43,011 bases of DNA from Rhodospirillaceae bacterium (GCA_029265995.1 JAJUFM010000010.1:1-43011), one strand, 5' to 3'; shown: positions 11,860 through 33,428, numbered from the stretch's first letter. The notes: generated from the sequence alone by a model not told the origin. Translations and numbers: made by a program.

Positions 11860-12984
11860 TTATAGCGAGCCTGAGCCGTCGTCGGAGAGGAGCCGCACCA
11901 GCTCGGCCTGGCGGGTCGTGCCCGTCTTCTCGAAGATTCGGTTGAGGTGGGTATGTGCGGTGGATACCGAGATTCCGCGACGACGGGCTGCGGCCTCTCG
12001 CCCGTCACCCTTGCAGATTTCAAGGGCGAAGGCTGCCTCCGCAGGGGTTAGCTCGTATTGCTCTTGCAGTGTGGCGCAACGATGGGCGGCATCTAGGTCG
12101 GGATCGGTCAGGATACCGATGGCAGTGGGGGACAGGAGGTCGAGCCAGGCTGGCGCGCCTTCCGGCCGTTGCTCCTTGAGGGGCAACAGTGCCAGCTTGA
12201 GGGGAGACCTGCGCCCTTCTCTTGCCAGGCTGACGTTCTCGCCTCTCCCCACCGCCAGAGACCGTCTTGATCCTGGACCGAGCAAGCGGTGAAAGTCGCC
12301 GCCTACTGGTCCAAGGGTGTCGATCATCTGGGCGCCTAGCTCGTTTTCAAAGATGATACGGCCCGCCCCATCCAGCAGCACAATGCCTTTCCGCAGGTGC
12401 TCGAGGGCGCGGAATGCCACATGTTCGCGCAGATGCAGGATGCTGGTCTGCTTTCGAAGCTCGAGCGCTCGTGCGATGTGCCGGGCTAGGAGGGTGACGA
12501 GTTCTCTCTGCTCGTGCTCGAAGGGCTCATCCTGTACGGGCGCTGCCCTGTAAAGCCCGAGTACGGCCTGAGCGCTGCCGGGCTCAGCCACGTTTGCCAG
12601 AAGTGCAGCCGAACCCAGCCCCATCGGTCTGAGCAGCTCGTTGAAGACCGCCGACTGCTTCAAGGCCGACAGGGGGAGGAGGTCCTGCATGCTGACCACA
12701 TCTCCCACCGCGACGCCAGACAGATCCGTAAAGAGAGACGTGCGCCCGGCCCAGTCGTTGCTGAATCTCAGGAGGTCGGCGGGATCAGTGCGAGGCGCGA
12801 TGGCCGTGGCTTGGCGGGTGACGGGATCGAAAAAACCCAGCGCCGGCACGTCCGCTCCGGCAAGTCCTGCCAGACGAAGAAGCACCTGAGGCCAGAGCTC
12901 GTCATCGAAGACCGTTTCATAGACCAGAGCGATCAGATCAGCGACCGGGTTGTCGCTCTTCGTGCCACTTTCTGCAGTCCGCAT
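11860..12984 (-). CDS. LuxR-type helix-turn-helix transcriptional regulator
   Basis: A protein of 374 residues. The last 65 residues form a LuxR/GerE-type DNA-binding domain: YELTPAEAAFALEICKG, then the GISVSTAHTHLNRIFEKTG recognition helices and RQAELVRLL. The N-terminal 190 residues look like a GAF-like sensor, and about 195-290 resemble a PAS-like segment (GIVLLDGAGRIIFENE). No receiver domain or acyl-homoserine-lactone domain is recognisable, so the signal is unknown. It has the same direction as the enolase-superfamily gene downstream and is divergent from the exported-protein cluster at 13125, with 140 bases between the start codons. A palindrome in that gap is a possible binding site. 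It could regulate either neighbour. Confidence 0.85.
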   Translation of the reverse strand: MRTAESGTKSDNPVADLIALVYETVFDDELWPQVLLRLAGLAGADVPALGFFDPVTRQATAIAPRTDPADLLRFSNDWAGRTSLFTDLSGVAVGDVVSMQDLLPLSALKQSAVFNELLRPMGLGSAALLANVAEPGSAQAVLGLYRAAPVQDEPFEHEQRELVTLLARHIARALELRKQTSILHLREHVAFRALEHLRKGIVLLDGAGRIIFENELGAQMIDTLGPVGGDFHRLLGPGSRRSLAVGRGENVSLAREGRRSPLKLALLPLKEQRPEGAPAWLDLLSPTAIGILTDPDLDAAHRCATLQEQYELTPAEAAFALEICKGDGREAAARRRGISVSTAHTHLNRIFEKTGTTRQAELVRLLSDDGSGSL

Positions 12985-13046: not shown

Positions 13047-13064
13047 ATCGACCATTCGGTCGAT
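13047..13064. promoter_or_regulatory. Palindrome in divergent gap between regulator and exported-protein cluster
   Basis: ATCGACC-ATTC-GGTCGAT is a perfect 7-base inverted repeat with a 4-base spacer. It lies about 60 bases from both the LuxR-type regulator start (12984) and the metallopeptidase-like gene start (13125). Size and position fit a dimeric regulator's operator. The binding protein is not proven. Confidence 0.45.
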
Positions 13065-13124: not shown

Positions 13125-14840
13125 ATGCTGCAAGTGGCACGCCGACTGGCACTGACCGTCATGGTCTCGGTGGTCAACCTTCTGTTCATTAGCATGGCCG
13201 CAGAAGCGCATTTCGGCGACTGCACCCAGGAGGCCTATCTTCTACAATTCGACGGCCGCCTCTCGGGAACGGGATTTACCTGTGAGGAGCGATTGCGTGA
13301 GGCGGTGGTGACCGAAGAGGGGGTGCGCCACATTCGTCTGGTACATGACCTCCACGTAGGCTGGGCGCTTTCTCCCGGAGCATTGGCCGATTATGAGCGC
13401 GGCCTTCGCGGTGCGGTGGAAGCTCTTCGGCGCATCGGCCCTTTTCGGATGGACGACGTCACGATTCTGCTGATCGATGGCTTGCCGCCGCGCGAGGAAG
13501 GTGATGGCGAGAGCTTCAGCAACATTGCCGGCAGCACCGGCGCCAGCGATAGCGAATGCCGCATCGCGATCCACCTTCTGGCGAGCAGCAGAGCCATCGC
13601 TGACGCGGCCTATGTCGTCGCTCACGAGATCTTCCATTGTGTTCAGTTCGCGAGCCTCTCGTCGGCCCAGATGAGCAGCAGCGGTGAGGGGACAGGCGCG
13701 GGCGGTGATTGGTGGATCGAAGGATCCGCAGACTGGTTTGCCGGCCTGTCGGTGTCAGATCGCGAAGTACTATCCCGACGAGTGGCCGCTTTCGATCGCG
13801 TTTCTGCCACTACGCCTCTTTACGAAATGGCCTATGCGGCTTCGGTTTTCTTTTTCTGGCTTGGCGATGACCAGGCGCCGACCGCCATCTTGCCCTTTCT
13901 TCATCAAATGGCGAGCGGCTCCTCAGCCGCGGCACAGCAGCGGGCAATGCGGGCTGCGCTGGACGCTGATGCCTGGCTGACGTTCGCTCAGGCCTATCTG
14001 GACCAAAGCATACCCTATCCCGACGGCTCGACGCTGCCGAGCAGGCCCTCAGAGGGTGAGACCTGGCGCTGGACGGAAACCCGCGTAGAGACCCTCTCCC
14101 TCGACCCTTTCGTGCTCCGCCGGGGATGGGTCGAGTTCGACTGTGGGCGCTGGCGGTCTTCTGGTGATCCCGAACGCGCCCATGCGGTGCGCGCGGCGCC
14201 TGGTGACTGGGGCCCGCTGCCCGAGCGGCTCGACACACAAGCGGGTGATGAGAGCCGCCTCCGTTTTGTGGGCTTTGTAGCACGGCCCGCCGTTCTCACG
14301 CTCAGGCTTCGGGGTGATCTGGAAGCCGGTTGCGGCACCTGCGGCGGCCTGGAGACCACGGACGCCTGTATCGTGGGGGCCTGGACCCAAAGTGGTGGCG
14401 GTCCGATCGCGTGGATGCAGCGGGAATTGGAGGGGCTGGAAATTCCTCATGGAGAGCGCCGCAACGTCATCGAGGTCTACAGATCGGATGGCTCCTTCTG
14501 GACCGGCGAGCTGACCGCCGACCTCACTTTTGAGGCGCTCGATGACTCCAGGGGTGGAGGGGAAGTCCATGCCAGAAGGGGCGGTCGCTGGTCGGCGGGC
14601 GACGGACGGCTGAATCTGTGTCACGATCACGTCGCGGTGGCAGGGGAAATAACCATGACCTATCCAGACGGGCAGAAGATCAGCGGTTCCATTCCCACTC
14701 CCTCCGCGCCGGAAGTGGTCTCGATGGAATACAGCTGCACAGAAAGCAGTCTCGAAACACGACTGAGCATTCCCGGTGTCGCCGCACCGATGGACACGCA
14801 GTATCGTCGGAGCGGCGATGCTTCGGGATCAGCGCCATGA
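13125..14840 (+). CDS. Exported putative zinc metallopeptidase (HExxH, gluzincin-like)
   Basis: A protein of 571 residues. The ATG at 13125 has GAGG upstream. A signal peptide ends around AAEA-HFGD (residues 27-30). VAHEIFHCVQ places a zinc-binding motif at H167, E168 and H171; WWIEGSADWFAG supplies a likely third ligand, E199, as in gluzincins with WxEGxA motifs. After the peptidase-like region (to about 300) come two beta-rich stretches: about 310-430, ending in the CGTCGG cysteines, and about 430-560, beginning ACIVGAW and reading like a lipocalin-like GxW barrel. Several cysteines suggest disulfides in the periplasm or outside the cell. I do not recognise a named family. The TGA overlaps the ATG of the next gene, so the two are translationally coupled. 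The peptidase role is inferred from the motif. Confidence 0.72.
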   Translation: MLQVARRLALTVMVSVVNLLFISMAAEAHFGDCTQEAYLLQFDGRLSGTGFTCEERLREAVVTEEGVRHIRLVHDLHVGWALSPGALADYERGLRGAVEALRRIGPFRMDDVTILLIDGLPPREEGDGESFSNIAGSTGASDSECRIAIHLLASSRAIADAAYVVAHEIFHCVQFASLSSAQMSSSGEGTGAGGDWWIEGSADWFAGLSVSDREVLSRRVAAFDRVSATTPLYEMAYAASVFFFWLGDDQAPTAILPFLHQMASGSSAAAQQRAMRAALDADAWLTFAQAYLDQSIPYPDGSTLPSRPSEGETWRWTETRVETLSLDPFVLRRGWVEFDCGRWRSSGDPERAHAVRAAPGDWGPLPERLDTQAGDESRLRFVGFVARPAVLTLRLRGDLEAGCGTCGGLETTDACIVGAWTQSGGGPIAWMQRELEGLEIPHGERRNVIEVYRSDGSFWTGELTADLTFEALDDSRGGGEVHARRGGRWSAGDGRLNLCHDHVAVAGEITMTYPDGQKISGSIPTPSAPEVVSMEYSCTESSLETRLSIPGVAAPMDTQYRRSGDASGSAP

Positions 14841-15352
14841 GGAGGTCTCTTAACGAAAAGCGCTTTCGCTTGCTTGCCACTTTAGGCGCGGTGCTGGTGA
14901 GTCAGCTTGTCGGTGCGCCTGCGCAGGCGCTGACGTGCCCCTACCCAGCGCGCAGCGTGGAGCGGATGCTGGCGGTCGACGAATATCGGTCCGCTGACCG
15001 CTTCGTCGCCTATGGCGTGATGATACCTTCTGAGCCGGTTCCGGAGTTCGATCCCGATATCCAGACTCGCCCCGCCTTTGAGGCGCGCTTTGAAGGGCTC
15101 CTGGCGCGGCCCAGTGGTTTCGATACCCATGCAGCCTTTCCGGTGAGTGTCACTTCATCCTGCATTTACCACGACGCCTGCGGCAGCGTGCCAAGTGGCC
15201 CTGAGCCCGCGATGATGGTGATCCGGACACAGGACAGCCAGTTCGTCTTCCATGCTTCGGTCTGCAACGACAACCTTTTGCCGAACCCGACAGATGAAGA
15301 GCTCACGCGGGCAATCGCGTGCCTGGATGGCATGAGCTGCGCCCCTCCATGA
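14837..15352 (+). CDS. Small exported cysteine-rich protein, possibly TIMP/NTR-like
   Basis: A protein of 171 residues with an ATGA overlap to the preceding gene; the start is fixed by this overlap and the signal peptide that follows (cleavage near APAQA-LTC, residue 32). The mature part has six cysteines (TCPYP, SSCIYHDACG, SVCNDN, IACLDGMSC), enough for three disulfides. The order 'CP near the N-terminus, FVAYG strand, a V-S-C...CG turn, late C' recalls the NTR/TIMP-like fold found in small secreted bacterial proteins, though the usual CxC opening is missing. If so, it could bind or inhibit the peptidase encoded just upstream. This is a weak pattern match without a database search; otherwise it is a hypothetical exported protein. 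Confidence 0.68.
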   Translation: MRRSLNEKRFRLLATLGAVLVSQLVGAPAQALTCPYPARSVERMLAVDEYRSADRFVAYGVMIPSEPVPEFDPDIQTRPAFEARFEGLLARPSGFDTHAAFPVSVTSSCIYHDACGSVPSGPEPAMMVIRTQDSQFVFHASVCNDNLLPNPTDEELTRAIACLDGMSCAPP

Positions 15353-15399
15353 GCGTGACGCCGAACCAGGACCGGCGACCTCCGGTGAAGGAGGCGAAA

Positions 15400-15789
15400 A
15401 TGCGCCTGCTGTCCCTCGTTCCGGCTGCCTTCGTTCTTTTCACCGGCTTGGGCCCGCAGCAGACGGCGACTGCCGCCGATATCCGCTTGCTCCAGCCGTC
15501 CTTGGACAGTGTGCCCAGCAGCCTGCTGGGTGCCGATACCGCCGAACTGGCCCATCAGATCGCGCAGGCGCTACGCAAGGAGACTGGCTTCTCCAATCTC
15601 AGAAACTTCTCGGTTTATTGGGAGCGGCCAAGTTTTCAGTGCCTGGTGCATAGCTACGAGTTGGCTCCGGACGTGGAGAGCGGTGTGTGTCTGGTCGAGG
15701 CCGGCGCGTTTCAAGTGCAGGCGACCGCATTGCTCATCAAACGGCGCGGTAGCGTCGAAGTTTCCATTCTCGATCTTCTGGTCGAGTAG
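15400..15789 (+). CDS. Small exported protein of unknown function
   Basis: A protein of 129 residues starting at ATG 15400, chosen because a strong GAAGGAGG lies six bases upstream and a clean signal peptide follows (MRLLSLVPAAFVLFTGL, cleavage near ATAA-DIR). An ATG at 15349 overlapping the previous stop is the alternative and would put 17 extra residues before the signal. The mature part has two cysteines (SFQCLVHSY and SGVCLVEAG) about 17 residues apart, probably one disulfide, and alternating helix and strand. I recognise no family. It sits between the six-cysteine protein and the OmpA-type protein on the same strand, so all four gene products are probably exported together. Confidence 0.65.
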   Translation: MRLLSLVPAAFVLFTGLGPQQTATAADIRLLQPSLDSVPSSLLGADTAELAHQIAQALRKETGFSNLRNFSVYWERPSFQCLVHSYELAPDVESGVCLVEAGAFQVQATALLIKRRGSVEVSILDLLVE

Positions 15790-15835
15790 AGGGGGTGCCA
15801 TAGGGTCGAAGCTTCCGGGTAAGAAGGGGAAGGTC

Positions 15836-16798
15836 ATGAGGCCGGTTCGTTGCTTGCTTCTTTCTATCGCGCTGGTCGGTTGCTGTTATTCCGCCGCGGT
15901 TGCTCAAGACCTGTCTGGGGCGGGCGACCATCCGCTTGTCGGTCGCTACGCGGGCTCTCAAATCAGCTTCCACGAAGTGCGCGCCTATGACGAGGTCGCC
16001 CTGCCGAACCAGATTGTGCCGGCCGGCGAAGATCGGAACCCTGACGCCTGGACACTGCAGCTTGCGGGCACCGTTACCTCGATCCGCTACGATGGTCCCG
16101 AAGGCCGCTCCGGGCTGGAAGTGATGCGCAACTATCAGGAGGCGCTGGAGGGGGGCGGCTTCGAGACACTTCTTTTCTGTGTTCGCGAGGAGTGCACGGA
16201 ACGCGGCGGCATCTCCTCATTCTGGGACAGCGCGCGGGGCATCATCGGAATGCCCACCACATGGGACCGTTCGATCTACTTGCTGGCGCAAAAGAACGGT
16301 GTTTTTGCCAGCTTGCTTTCGGTCGAAACCGGCTCGGGCGCTGCAGTCGTTCCGCATGTTGCCTTGACGCTGGTTGAGACGGACGAGATGGAAAAGGACC
16401 AGATCACCCTCGTAGAGGTTTCGGCCATGGAGCAGGCCTTCGCGGCGGACGGGCGCATTGCCATCTACGGTATCTACTTCGACTTTGATTCCGACGACCT
16501 GCAGCCAGAGTCTGATGCCCAGCTTGCGGAACTGGCGCGCTTACTTGAAGAAAATCCTGACCTGAGGGTCGTGATCGTCGGCCACACGGATTCCTTTGGT
16601 AGCTTCGACTATAATCTCAGCCTTTCCCAGAGGCGGGCGCAGGCGGTGGCCGATGCTCTTGTGTCTGACTACGGCATCGCGGCAGATCGCCTCACCCCGG
16701 CGGGCGCTGGCATGGTTGCGCCGGCATCGACGAACCGGACCGAGGAGGGGAGGGCGCTGAATCGGCGGGTGGAGATAGTGGAATTCTTTAGCGAGTAG
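15836..16798 (+). CDS. OmpA family protein with DUF4892-like N-terminal domain
   Basis: A protein of 320 residues from ATG 15836, after an AAGGGGAAGG ribosome site. A signal peptide ends near AVAQ-DLS (residue 24). Residues 30-200 begin GDHPLVGRYAGSQI and continue with a strand pattern that I associate with DUF4892. The C-terminal 115 residues are an OmpA/MotB peptidoglycan-binding domain: YFDFDSDDLQPES, VVIVGHTDSFGSFDYN, LSLSQRRAQAV and NRRVEIVEF, with the arginine and aspartate that clamp diaminopimelate. The protein is expected in the periplasm or attached to the outer membrane, bound to peptidoglycan. It closes the exported-protein cluster and is followed by a two-way terminator-like hairpin. 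The OmpA call is firm; the N-terminal domain name is from memory. Confidence 0.86.
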   Translation: MRPVRCLLLSIALVGCCYSAAVAQDLSGAGDHPLVGRYAGSQISFHEVRAYDEVALPNQIVPAGEDRNPDAWTLQLAGTVTSIRYDGPEGRSGLEVMRNYQEALEGGGFETLLFCVREECTERGGISSFWDSARGIIGMPTTWDRSIYLLAQKNGVFASLLSVETGSGAAVVPHVALTLVETDEMEKDQITLVEVSAMEQAFAADGRIAIYGIYFDFDSDDLQPESDAQLAELARLLEENPDLRVVIVGHTDSFGSFDYNLSLSQRRAQAVADALVSDYGIAADRLTPAGAGMVAPASTNRTEEGRALNRRVEIVEFFSE

Positions 16799-16830
16799 CC
16801 GGGTTTCAAGGCAAAGCCTTTCCACCCGGC
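16798..16830. terminator. Bidirectional terminator-like hairpin between convergent genes
   Basis: GCCGGGT pairs with ACCCGGC across a loop that itself holds AAGGC-AAA-GCCTT, giving a nested hairpin in the 54 bases between the OmpA-type gene (plus) and the PPOX gene (minus). The symmetry serves both directions. There is no long T-run, so termination strength is uncertain. Confidence 0.5.
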
Positions 16831-33209: not shown

Positions 33210-33229
33210 TGCGCAGTTAGAAAGCTGAC

Positions 33230-33428
33230 TCCCTGCCTGGGAGAGTTCGTGCGACCTGTTGGACGTGCGGCGCCGAAGGAGCAACCGCCCCGGAAACTCT
33301 CAGGCAAAAGGACCGGGCAGGGTAGGCAAATCTGGAAAGCGGGCACGCGCTACCAGTCGATGGCTTGTGCCCCACCGAAGGAGTAAGTCGCGCGTCGCGG
33401 CGAATCTCTCAGGTCCCGGGACAGAGGG
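33230..33428 (+). ncRNA. Tandem glycine riboswitch (two gcvT-type aptamers)
   Basis: Two aptamers lie in the 322-base gap before gcvT. The first (about 33230-33321) has closing stem CCCTGCC/GGGCAGGG, the GGGAGAGTT start, the GCCGAAGGAGCAA core and CTCTCAGGCAAAAGGACCG. The second (about 33329-33428) has TCTGGAAAGC, the ACCGAAGGAGTAAG core and TCTCTCAGGTCCCGGGACAGA. These are the invariant segments of the glycine riboswitch. Glycine binding usually turns on the glycine cleavage genes. No clear terminator hairpin with a T-run lies between the second aptamer and gcvT, so control may act on translation through the ribosome site near 33467-33473. Confidence 0.95.

What the first reader, a model, noticed from the sequence alone, without database searches (positions are those of the whole stretch)
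13125..16798. Four consecutive exported proteins, possible undescribed peptidase-centred envelope system
Seen: four plus-strand genes in a row, all with signal peptides, the first two with an ATGA overlap, closed by a two-way hairpin and preceded by a divergent LuxR-type regulator and a perfect palindrome. The products are an HExxH protein, a six-cysteine small protein, a two-cysteine small protein and an OmpA-domain protein. Known: OmpA domains bind peptidoglycan; HExxH plus WxEG marks gluzincins. Inference: the set acts together at the cell surface, with the OmpA protein as anchor and the peptidase as effector. I know of no described system with this composition.
Basis: partly seen in the sequence, partly recalled or inferred. 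Interest (0 to 1): 0.6.

Follow-up and report, generated by a model that had tools for sequence, protein, structure and literature searches.

The report
Secreted zinc protease with wall-binding partner
A four-gene unit in a marine alphaproteobacterium makes an exported zinc protease and a cell-wall-binding protein that turn up side by side in several distant bacteria, plus two small exported proteins of which one looks like the animal TIMP/netrin fold; the protease-anchor pairing is real and apparently undescribed, but what it cuts is unknown.

Summary
Four plus-strand genes (13125-16798) encode exported proteins, behind a divergent LuxR-type gene and a perfect palindrome. All four are kept in order, with the ATGA overlap and palindrome, in Aquibaculum arenosum, under purifying selection (dN/dS 0.09-0.22). 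P1 is a gluzincin-fold zinc peptidase (AF2 pLDDT 91) with a C-terminal lipocalin-like domain; its catalytic residues are invariant in 59 sequences. P4 is a DUF4892-like plus OmpA protein. Outside the genus the four-gene set breaks up, but P1 lies beside an OmpA-domain protein in seven further loci from several families, always on one strand, in both orders; the P1 tree needs at least six changes. That pair is the recurrent core. P2 belongs to a six-cysteine secreted family common in one other order, where no such metallopeptidase is beside it; a low-confidence model puts it nearest NTR/TIMP domains. P3 is genus-restricted. Best reading: a LuxR-controlled periplasmic or surface zinc endopeptidase, positioned by a peptidoglycan-binding partner, with two accessory proteins that may restrain or assist it. 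Substrate, complex formation and inhibition are untested. The closing hairpin has no T-run and is not conserved.

The parts
11860..12984 (-). divergent LuxR-type regulator (GAF-like sensor part, C-terminal HTH), 374 aa
   Evidence: weak GerE and GAF hits; homologue L061:15578-16735 has a clear GerE hit; same position in A. arenosum, 67% identity, dN/dS 0.15
13047..13064 (.). perfect inverted repeat ATCGACC-N4-GGTCGAT, candidate operator shared by the LuxR gene and P1
   Evidence: arms identical in A. arenosum
13125..14840 (+). P1: exported zinc peptidase; gluzincin catalytic domain about 30-308, beta domain about 310-405, lipocalin-like domain about 410-569
   Evidence: HExxH and the WWxEG Glu invariant in 59 sequences; AF2 pLDDT 91.3; VIA Z 11.7 to collagenase H peptidase domain, Z about 11 to M1 aminopeptidases, Z 10.7 to lipocalin 4gzv for 410-569
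14837..15352 (+). P2: exported six-cysteine protein, probable OB-fold, nearest to NTR/TIMP domains; ATGA overlap with P1
   Evidence: family in 95 of 196 genomes of another order, Cys pattern kept; AF2 pLDDT 62 and VIA top rows PCOLCE1 NTR Z 6.7, agrin NtA 5.9, TIMP-1 5.7, TIMP-3 5.5
15400..15789 (+). P3: small exported protein with two cysteines, no known family
   Evidence: found only in the genus; dN/dS 0.15
15836..16798 (+). P4: exported DUF4892-like domain (Mog1p/PsbP-like in PA1624) plus C-terminal OmpA domain
   Evidence: OmpA 1.1e-22; DUF4892 26.6 bits, just under the cut-off here, above it in homologues L031 and L060 (54.4 and 57.8 bits)
16798..16830 (.). hairpin after P4, no T-run on either side, not conserved

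Best explanation
A LuxR-controlled operon for a periplasmic or surface zinc endopeptidase (P1) and the peptidoglycan-binding protein that holds or positions it (P4). P1 is exported, folds with disulfides, and uses H167, H171 and E199 to bind zinc and E168 to activate water; the lipocalin-like domain probably binds a ligand or substrate. P4 binds peptidoglycan through its OmpA domain and offers the DUF4892-like domain as the docking surface for P1 or for a shared substrate. P2 and P3, encoded between them, are accessories of this genus that most likely restrain, fold or protect P1. Shown: gene order, conservation, invariant active-site residues, predicted fold of P1, recurrent P1-OmpA linkage, conserved palindrome. 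Inferred: export by Sec, activity, zinc, peptidoglycan binding, any contact between the proteins, the LuxR protein binding the palindrome, one transcript.
For: P1 catalytic residues invariant in 59 sequences and gluzincin fold at high confidence. An OmpA-domain protein is the most recurrent neighbour in 80 P1 loci: within 3 kb in 9 distinct loci (one of a different OmpA type) against 2 hits in nearly twice as much more distant DNA (the script's p = 0.001 counts L060 twice, about 0.002 by hand without it), every hit on the P1 strand. Both orders occur, P1-P4 (L030, L031, L060, L061, L079) and P4-P1 (L038, L051, L094). At least six changes on the P1 tree; the Aquibaculum P4 is not sister to the P4 of its closest P1 relatives (weakly resolved), as if partners had been re-recruited. 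In 58 genomes 6 have both, 2 P1 only, 2 P4 only, 48 neither (Fisher 1.8e-5, not corrected for kinship). Operon architecture and palindrome conserved in A. arenosum.
Against: Most P1 loci have no P4 within reach (about 70 of 80), and P4 occurs without P1, so neither needs the other. The OmpA proteins of L038, L079 and L094 gave no Pfam DUF4892 hit and that of L051 is fragmentary, so only Aquibaculum, L031, L060 and L061 are clear P4 relatives of the same architecture. No sequence match to a solved peptidase, no known substrate.
Confidence: 0.5

Rival explanations
1. P2 is a protease inhibitor: an NTR/TIMP-like OB-fold protein, translated together with P1, that blocks P1 until release, as TIMPs block metzincins. 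(This can hold together with the main explanation.)
For: The NTR guess was written down before the model was made; the best VIA rows are NTR/TIMP family members ahead of other OB-folds; gene overlap with P1; a metzincin/TIMP-like pair is known in Listeria (PMC8235301).
Against: Model confidence is low (pLDDT 62, two sequences) and Z is below 8. Foldseek ranks other OB-folds first. No hit to PF00965. The likely mature N-terminus is L-T-C, so Cys is at +3 while TIMPs need Cys at +1 (TIMP rule from general knowledge). In the other order the family sits near an S41 protease gene and rppH with no HExxH/WxxEG gene close by.
Confidence: 0.18
2. The four genes are separate envelope functions that happen to be neighbours; the P1-OmpA linkage is chance plus kinship.
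For: Four-gene set only in one genus; most P1 loci lack P4; P2 is a common stand-alone family elsewhere.
Against: Density of OmpA genes near P1 about nine times that farther out, all on one strand, at least six changes on the tree, both gene orders.
Confidence: 0.2
3. P1 is a nutritional or defensive exoprotease released to the medium, and P4 only protects or stabilises the producer's wall; no physical partnership.
For: P1 has a signal peptide and no evident anchor; closest folds include secreted collagenases; the named relative comes from sea sand.
Against: The recurrent partner carries a peptidoglycan-binding type domain, which points to the periplasm.
Confidence: 0.12

Closest known systems
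M9 collagenase and M1 aminopeptidase peptidase domains (gluzincins)
   Same: fold of P1 residues 30-308 (VIA Z 10-11.7), HExxH and a downstream Glu ligand
   Different: 8-14% identity, no sequence match in Pfam or PDB, no GAMEN motif, different C-terminal domains
MXAN_6640 family putative metalloprotease (NF045524)
   Same: best NCBIfam hit over the HExxH region (E 4.3e-06)
   Different: 26.7 bits against a cut-off of 140; not a member
PA1624 / DUF4892 proteins
   Same: N-terminal domain of P4; PA1624 joins a Mog1p/PsbP-like domain to an OmpA-like domain (PMC7716261)
   Different: PA1624's OmpA-like domain lacks the glycan-binding motifs, P4 has a full OmpA domain; no peptidase partner was mentioned in the passages read
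Listeria mtz-tim pair (PMC8235301)
   Same: secreted zinc peptidase encoded next to a TIMP-like protein, regulators alongside
   Different: metzincin not gluzincin, TIMP-like lipoprotein, phage-derived, no OmpA partner

Membership tests
gluzincin metallopeptidases | HExxH plus downstream Glu ligand | tested here: met
   H167, E168, H171 and E199 invariant in 59 sequences
gluzincin metallopeptidases | thermolysin/M1/M9-like catalytic fold | tested here: met
   AF2 pLDDT 91; VIA Z up to 11.7, 220 residues, rmsd 4.6; prediction only
gluzincin metallopeptidases | zinc binding and proteolysis | not testable with these tools
   needs protein
M1 aminopeptidases | GAMEN exopeptidase motif | tested here: not met
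   absent from the P1 sequence
M9 collagenases | match to the Peptidase_M9 family model | tested here: not met
   only DUF6055 at E 0.02 in Pfam
MXAN_6640 family (NF045524) | score above the curated 140 bits | tested here: not met
   26.7 bits
OmpA family (PF00691) | domain match above cut-off | tested here: met
   80.7 bits against 27.2
OmpA family (PF00691) | peptidoglycan binding | not testable with these tools
   the Asp/Arg pair is present (D252, R267 invariant); its role is recalled from memory
DUF4892 (PF16234) | match above cut-off 28.8 | tested here: inconclusive
   26.6 bits for P4, 54.4 and 57.8 for homologues L031 and L060
TIMP family (PF00965) | family model match | tested here: not met
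   no match at E 10 in the own genome; none among 31 family members in Pfam
TIMP family (PF00965) | Cys at position 1 of the mature protein | tested here: not met
   cleavage site read by eye, AQA/LTC and ALA/LSC, puts Cys at +3
NTR/TIMP fold | five-stranded OB-barrel with terminal helices | tested here: inconclusive
   VIA Z 5.5-6.7 to NTR/TIMP domains with a model of pLDDT 62
Listeria-type mtz-tim pair | metzincin motif HExxHxxGxxH/D in the peptidase | tested here: not met
   P1 has HEIFHCVQFAS and a downstream Glu, no third ligand of the metzincin kind

The most novel reading that the evidence does not exclude
A peptidoglycan-tethered zinc protease complex in which an NTR/TIMP-fold protein, encoded in the same operon, restrains a gluzincin: a bacterial protease-inhibitor-anchor set parallel to animal MMP-TIMP-matrix control.
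Probability: 0.12. Interest if true: 0.75.

Novelty: new variant of a known kind. Interest (0 to 1): 0.45.

Why it matters
It points to an exported peptidase family without a Pfam or NCBIfam model, spread patchily over Pseudomonadota and possibly other phyla, whose most recurrent neighbour is a wall-binding protein. It gives DUF4892-OmpA proteins, so far without function, a candidate partner, and places a widespread six-cysteine secreted family near the NTR/TIMP fold, which can be tested directly.

Tried and rejected
No match of P1 in IMG/VR or plasmids: no sign of a mobile or phage origin. P2 and P3 not found outside the genus in single-sequence searches of 58 genomes. TIMP model search of the own genome empty. 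PDB sequence searches with P1, P2 and P3 profiles gave only chance-like hits. Pfam and NCBIfam over 31 P2 relatives gave no family. The small gene overlapping the end of P1 in Fodinicurvata (L010, L011) is not a P2 relative. The OmpA proteins of L068 and L073 have a different N-terminal part and were not counted as P4. Unpaired P4 genes showed no zinc peptidase next door. The middle domain of P1 and the N-terminal domain of P4 were not folded or searched alone, and P3 was not folded (two prediction jobs only).

Full report
What is there. The window is contig C82 of a genome in the same genus as Aquibaculum arenosum (Rhodovibrionaceae). The four genes are as described: P1 13125-14840, P2 14837-15352, P3 15400-15789, P4 15836-16798. 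In A. arenosum (L009, L030) all four lie in the same order with the same ATGA overlap, at 72, 60, 55 and 82% identity and dN/dS 0.13, 0.22, 0.15 and 0.09, so all four are real, constrained genes. The divergent LuxR-type gene is also kept. The palindrome ATCGACC-N4-GGTCGAT at 13047-13064 keeps both arms in A. arenosum although the rest of the intergenic region has diverged, which makes it a candidate operator. The hairpin behind P4 has no T-run and is missing in A. arenosum, so I do not count it as a terminator.

P1. Pfam and NCBIfam give only sub-threshold hits to HExxH families. The family was collected from 80 loci of species genomes, mostly Alphaproteobacteria and Lysobacteraceae, a few labelled Acidobacteria or Chloroflexota (metagenome bins, so the labels are unsure). 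H167, E168, H171, E199, W196, C145, C172 and C406 are among the columns invariant in 59 sequences. The AlphaFold2 model (pLDDT 91.3) shows a gluzincin catalytic domain (collagenase H peptidase domain Z 11.7, M1 aminopeptidases Z about 11), a beta domain, and a C-terminal lipocalin-like barrel (Z 10.7). The M1 GAMEN motif is absent, so an endopeptidase is more likely. P1 is rare: among 385 genomes drawn from the class, E <= 1e-20 gave the two Aquibaculum, G204, and in G260 a stretch matching only the C-terminal domain (at most three candidates were scored per genome, so this is a lower bound).

P4 and the pairing. P4 has a cleavable signal, a DUF4892-like domain and an OmpA domain. The DUF4892 structure PA1624 is a Mog1p/PsbP-like domain with an OmpA-like domain, function unknown (PMC7716261). 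Clustering of all neighbours within 5 kb of P1 in 80 loci gives the OmpA-domain protein as the most recurrent neighbour. It lies within 3 kb of P1 in 9 loci (one of them, L068, a different OmpA type), all on the P1 strand; beyond 3 kb there are 2 hits in 784 kb, against 434 kb of near DNA (that script counts L060 twice). Order P1-P4: Aquibaculum, Pseudaminobacter manganicus, Tistlia consotensis, Bordetella petrii BT1, Parvibaculum indicum. Order P4-P1: Lysobacter, Acidobacteria and Rhodocyclales bins. On the P1 tree the pairing needs at least six changes; Aquibaculum, Pseudaminobacter and Bordetella form one supported clade, all paired, which points to transfer between families. The P4 tree, weakly resolved, does not put the Aquibaculum P4 with that of Pseudaminobacter and Bordetella, so the partner may have been exchanged. 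In B. petrii BT1 P1 is broken while P4 is open, and in Pseudoxanthomonas sp. NC8 P1 is broken too. Most P1 loci are nevertheless unpaired, and P4 occurs alone.

P2 and P3. The six cysteines are nearly always kept. In many of these genomes the gene sits between an S41-type C-terminal processing protease gene and an rppH-like Nudix gene (named here from their sequences, by eye), with no HExxH/WxxEG neighbour. Before the model was made I noted a resemblance to NTR/TIMP domains. The model is weak (pLDDT 62, two sequences), but its best VIA rows are the NTR domain of PCOLCE1 (Z 6.7), agrin NtA (5.9), TIMP-1 (5.7) and TIMP-3 (5.5); Foldseek alone prefers other OB-folds. The TIMP model does not hit and Cys would be at +3 of the mature protein, so TIMP-type zinc chelation is not expected. 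P3 has no relative outside the genus at the sensitivity used.

Mechanism. I commit to a zinc endopeptidase of the periplasm or surface, positioned by a peptidoglycan-binding partner, under LuxR-type control, with two accessory proteins of the genus. Fold (by prediction), conservation and linkage are shown; activity, location, contact and control are inferred. The inhibitor role of P2 is held at about 0.18.

Novelty. The parts are of known kinds; the peptidase family and its pairing with a DUF4892-OmpA protein appear undescribed in the libraries and papers that I could search (one paper mentions DUF4892, none MXAN_6640). The closest described arrangement is the Listeria metzincin/TIMP-like pair.

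Noticed in passing
window 33228-33325 (+): Glycine riboswitch aptamer, 65.4 bits.
   Followed up: no
L172-L186: The P2 family gene sits in a conserved place between an S41-type processing protease gene and an rppH-like gene; the family is in about half the sampled genomes of that order.
   Followed up: partly
L061:9995-11081 and L066:9962-11630: P1 is broken into pieces in Bordetella petrii BT1 and Pseudoxanthomonas sp. NC8; in the former the neighbouring P4 is open.
   Followed up: no
L062:9968-12170 and L126 (G260:C26:28907-29383): The C-terminal lipocalin-like domain of P1 occurs apart: as a piece before a full P1 in Chelativorans and alone in G260.
   Followed up: no
L068:2768-4363, L073:5077-6654: Rhodobacteraceae P1 loci have a different OmpA protein 2-5 kb upstream, with another N-terminal part that looks PstS-like by eye.
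   Followed up: partly
L010:10170-10616, L011:8881-9315: In Fodinicurvata a small unrelated gene overlaps the end of P1.
   Followed up: no
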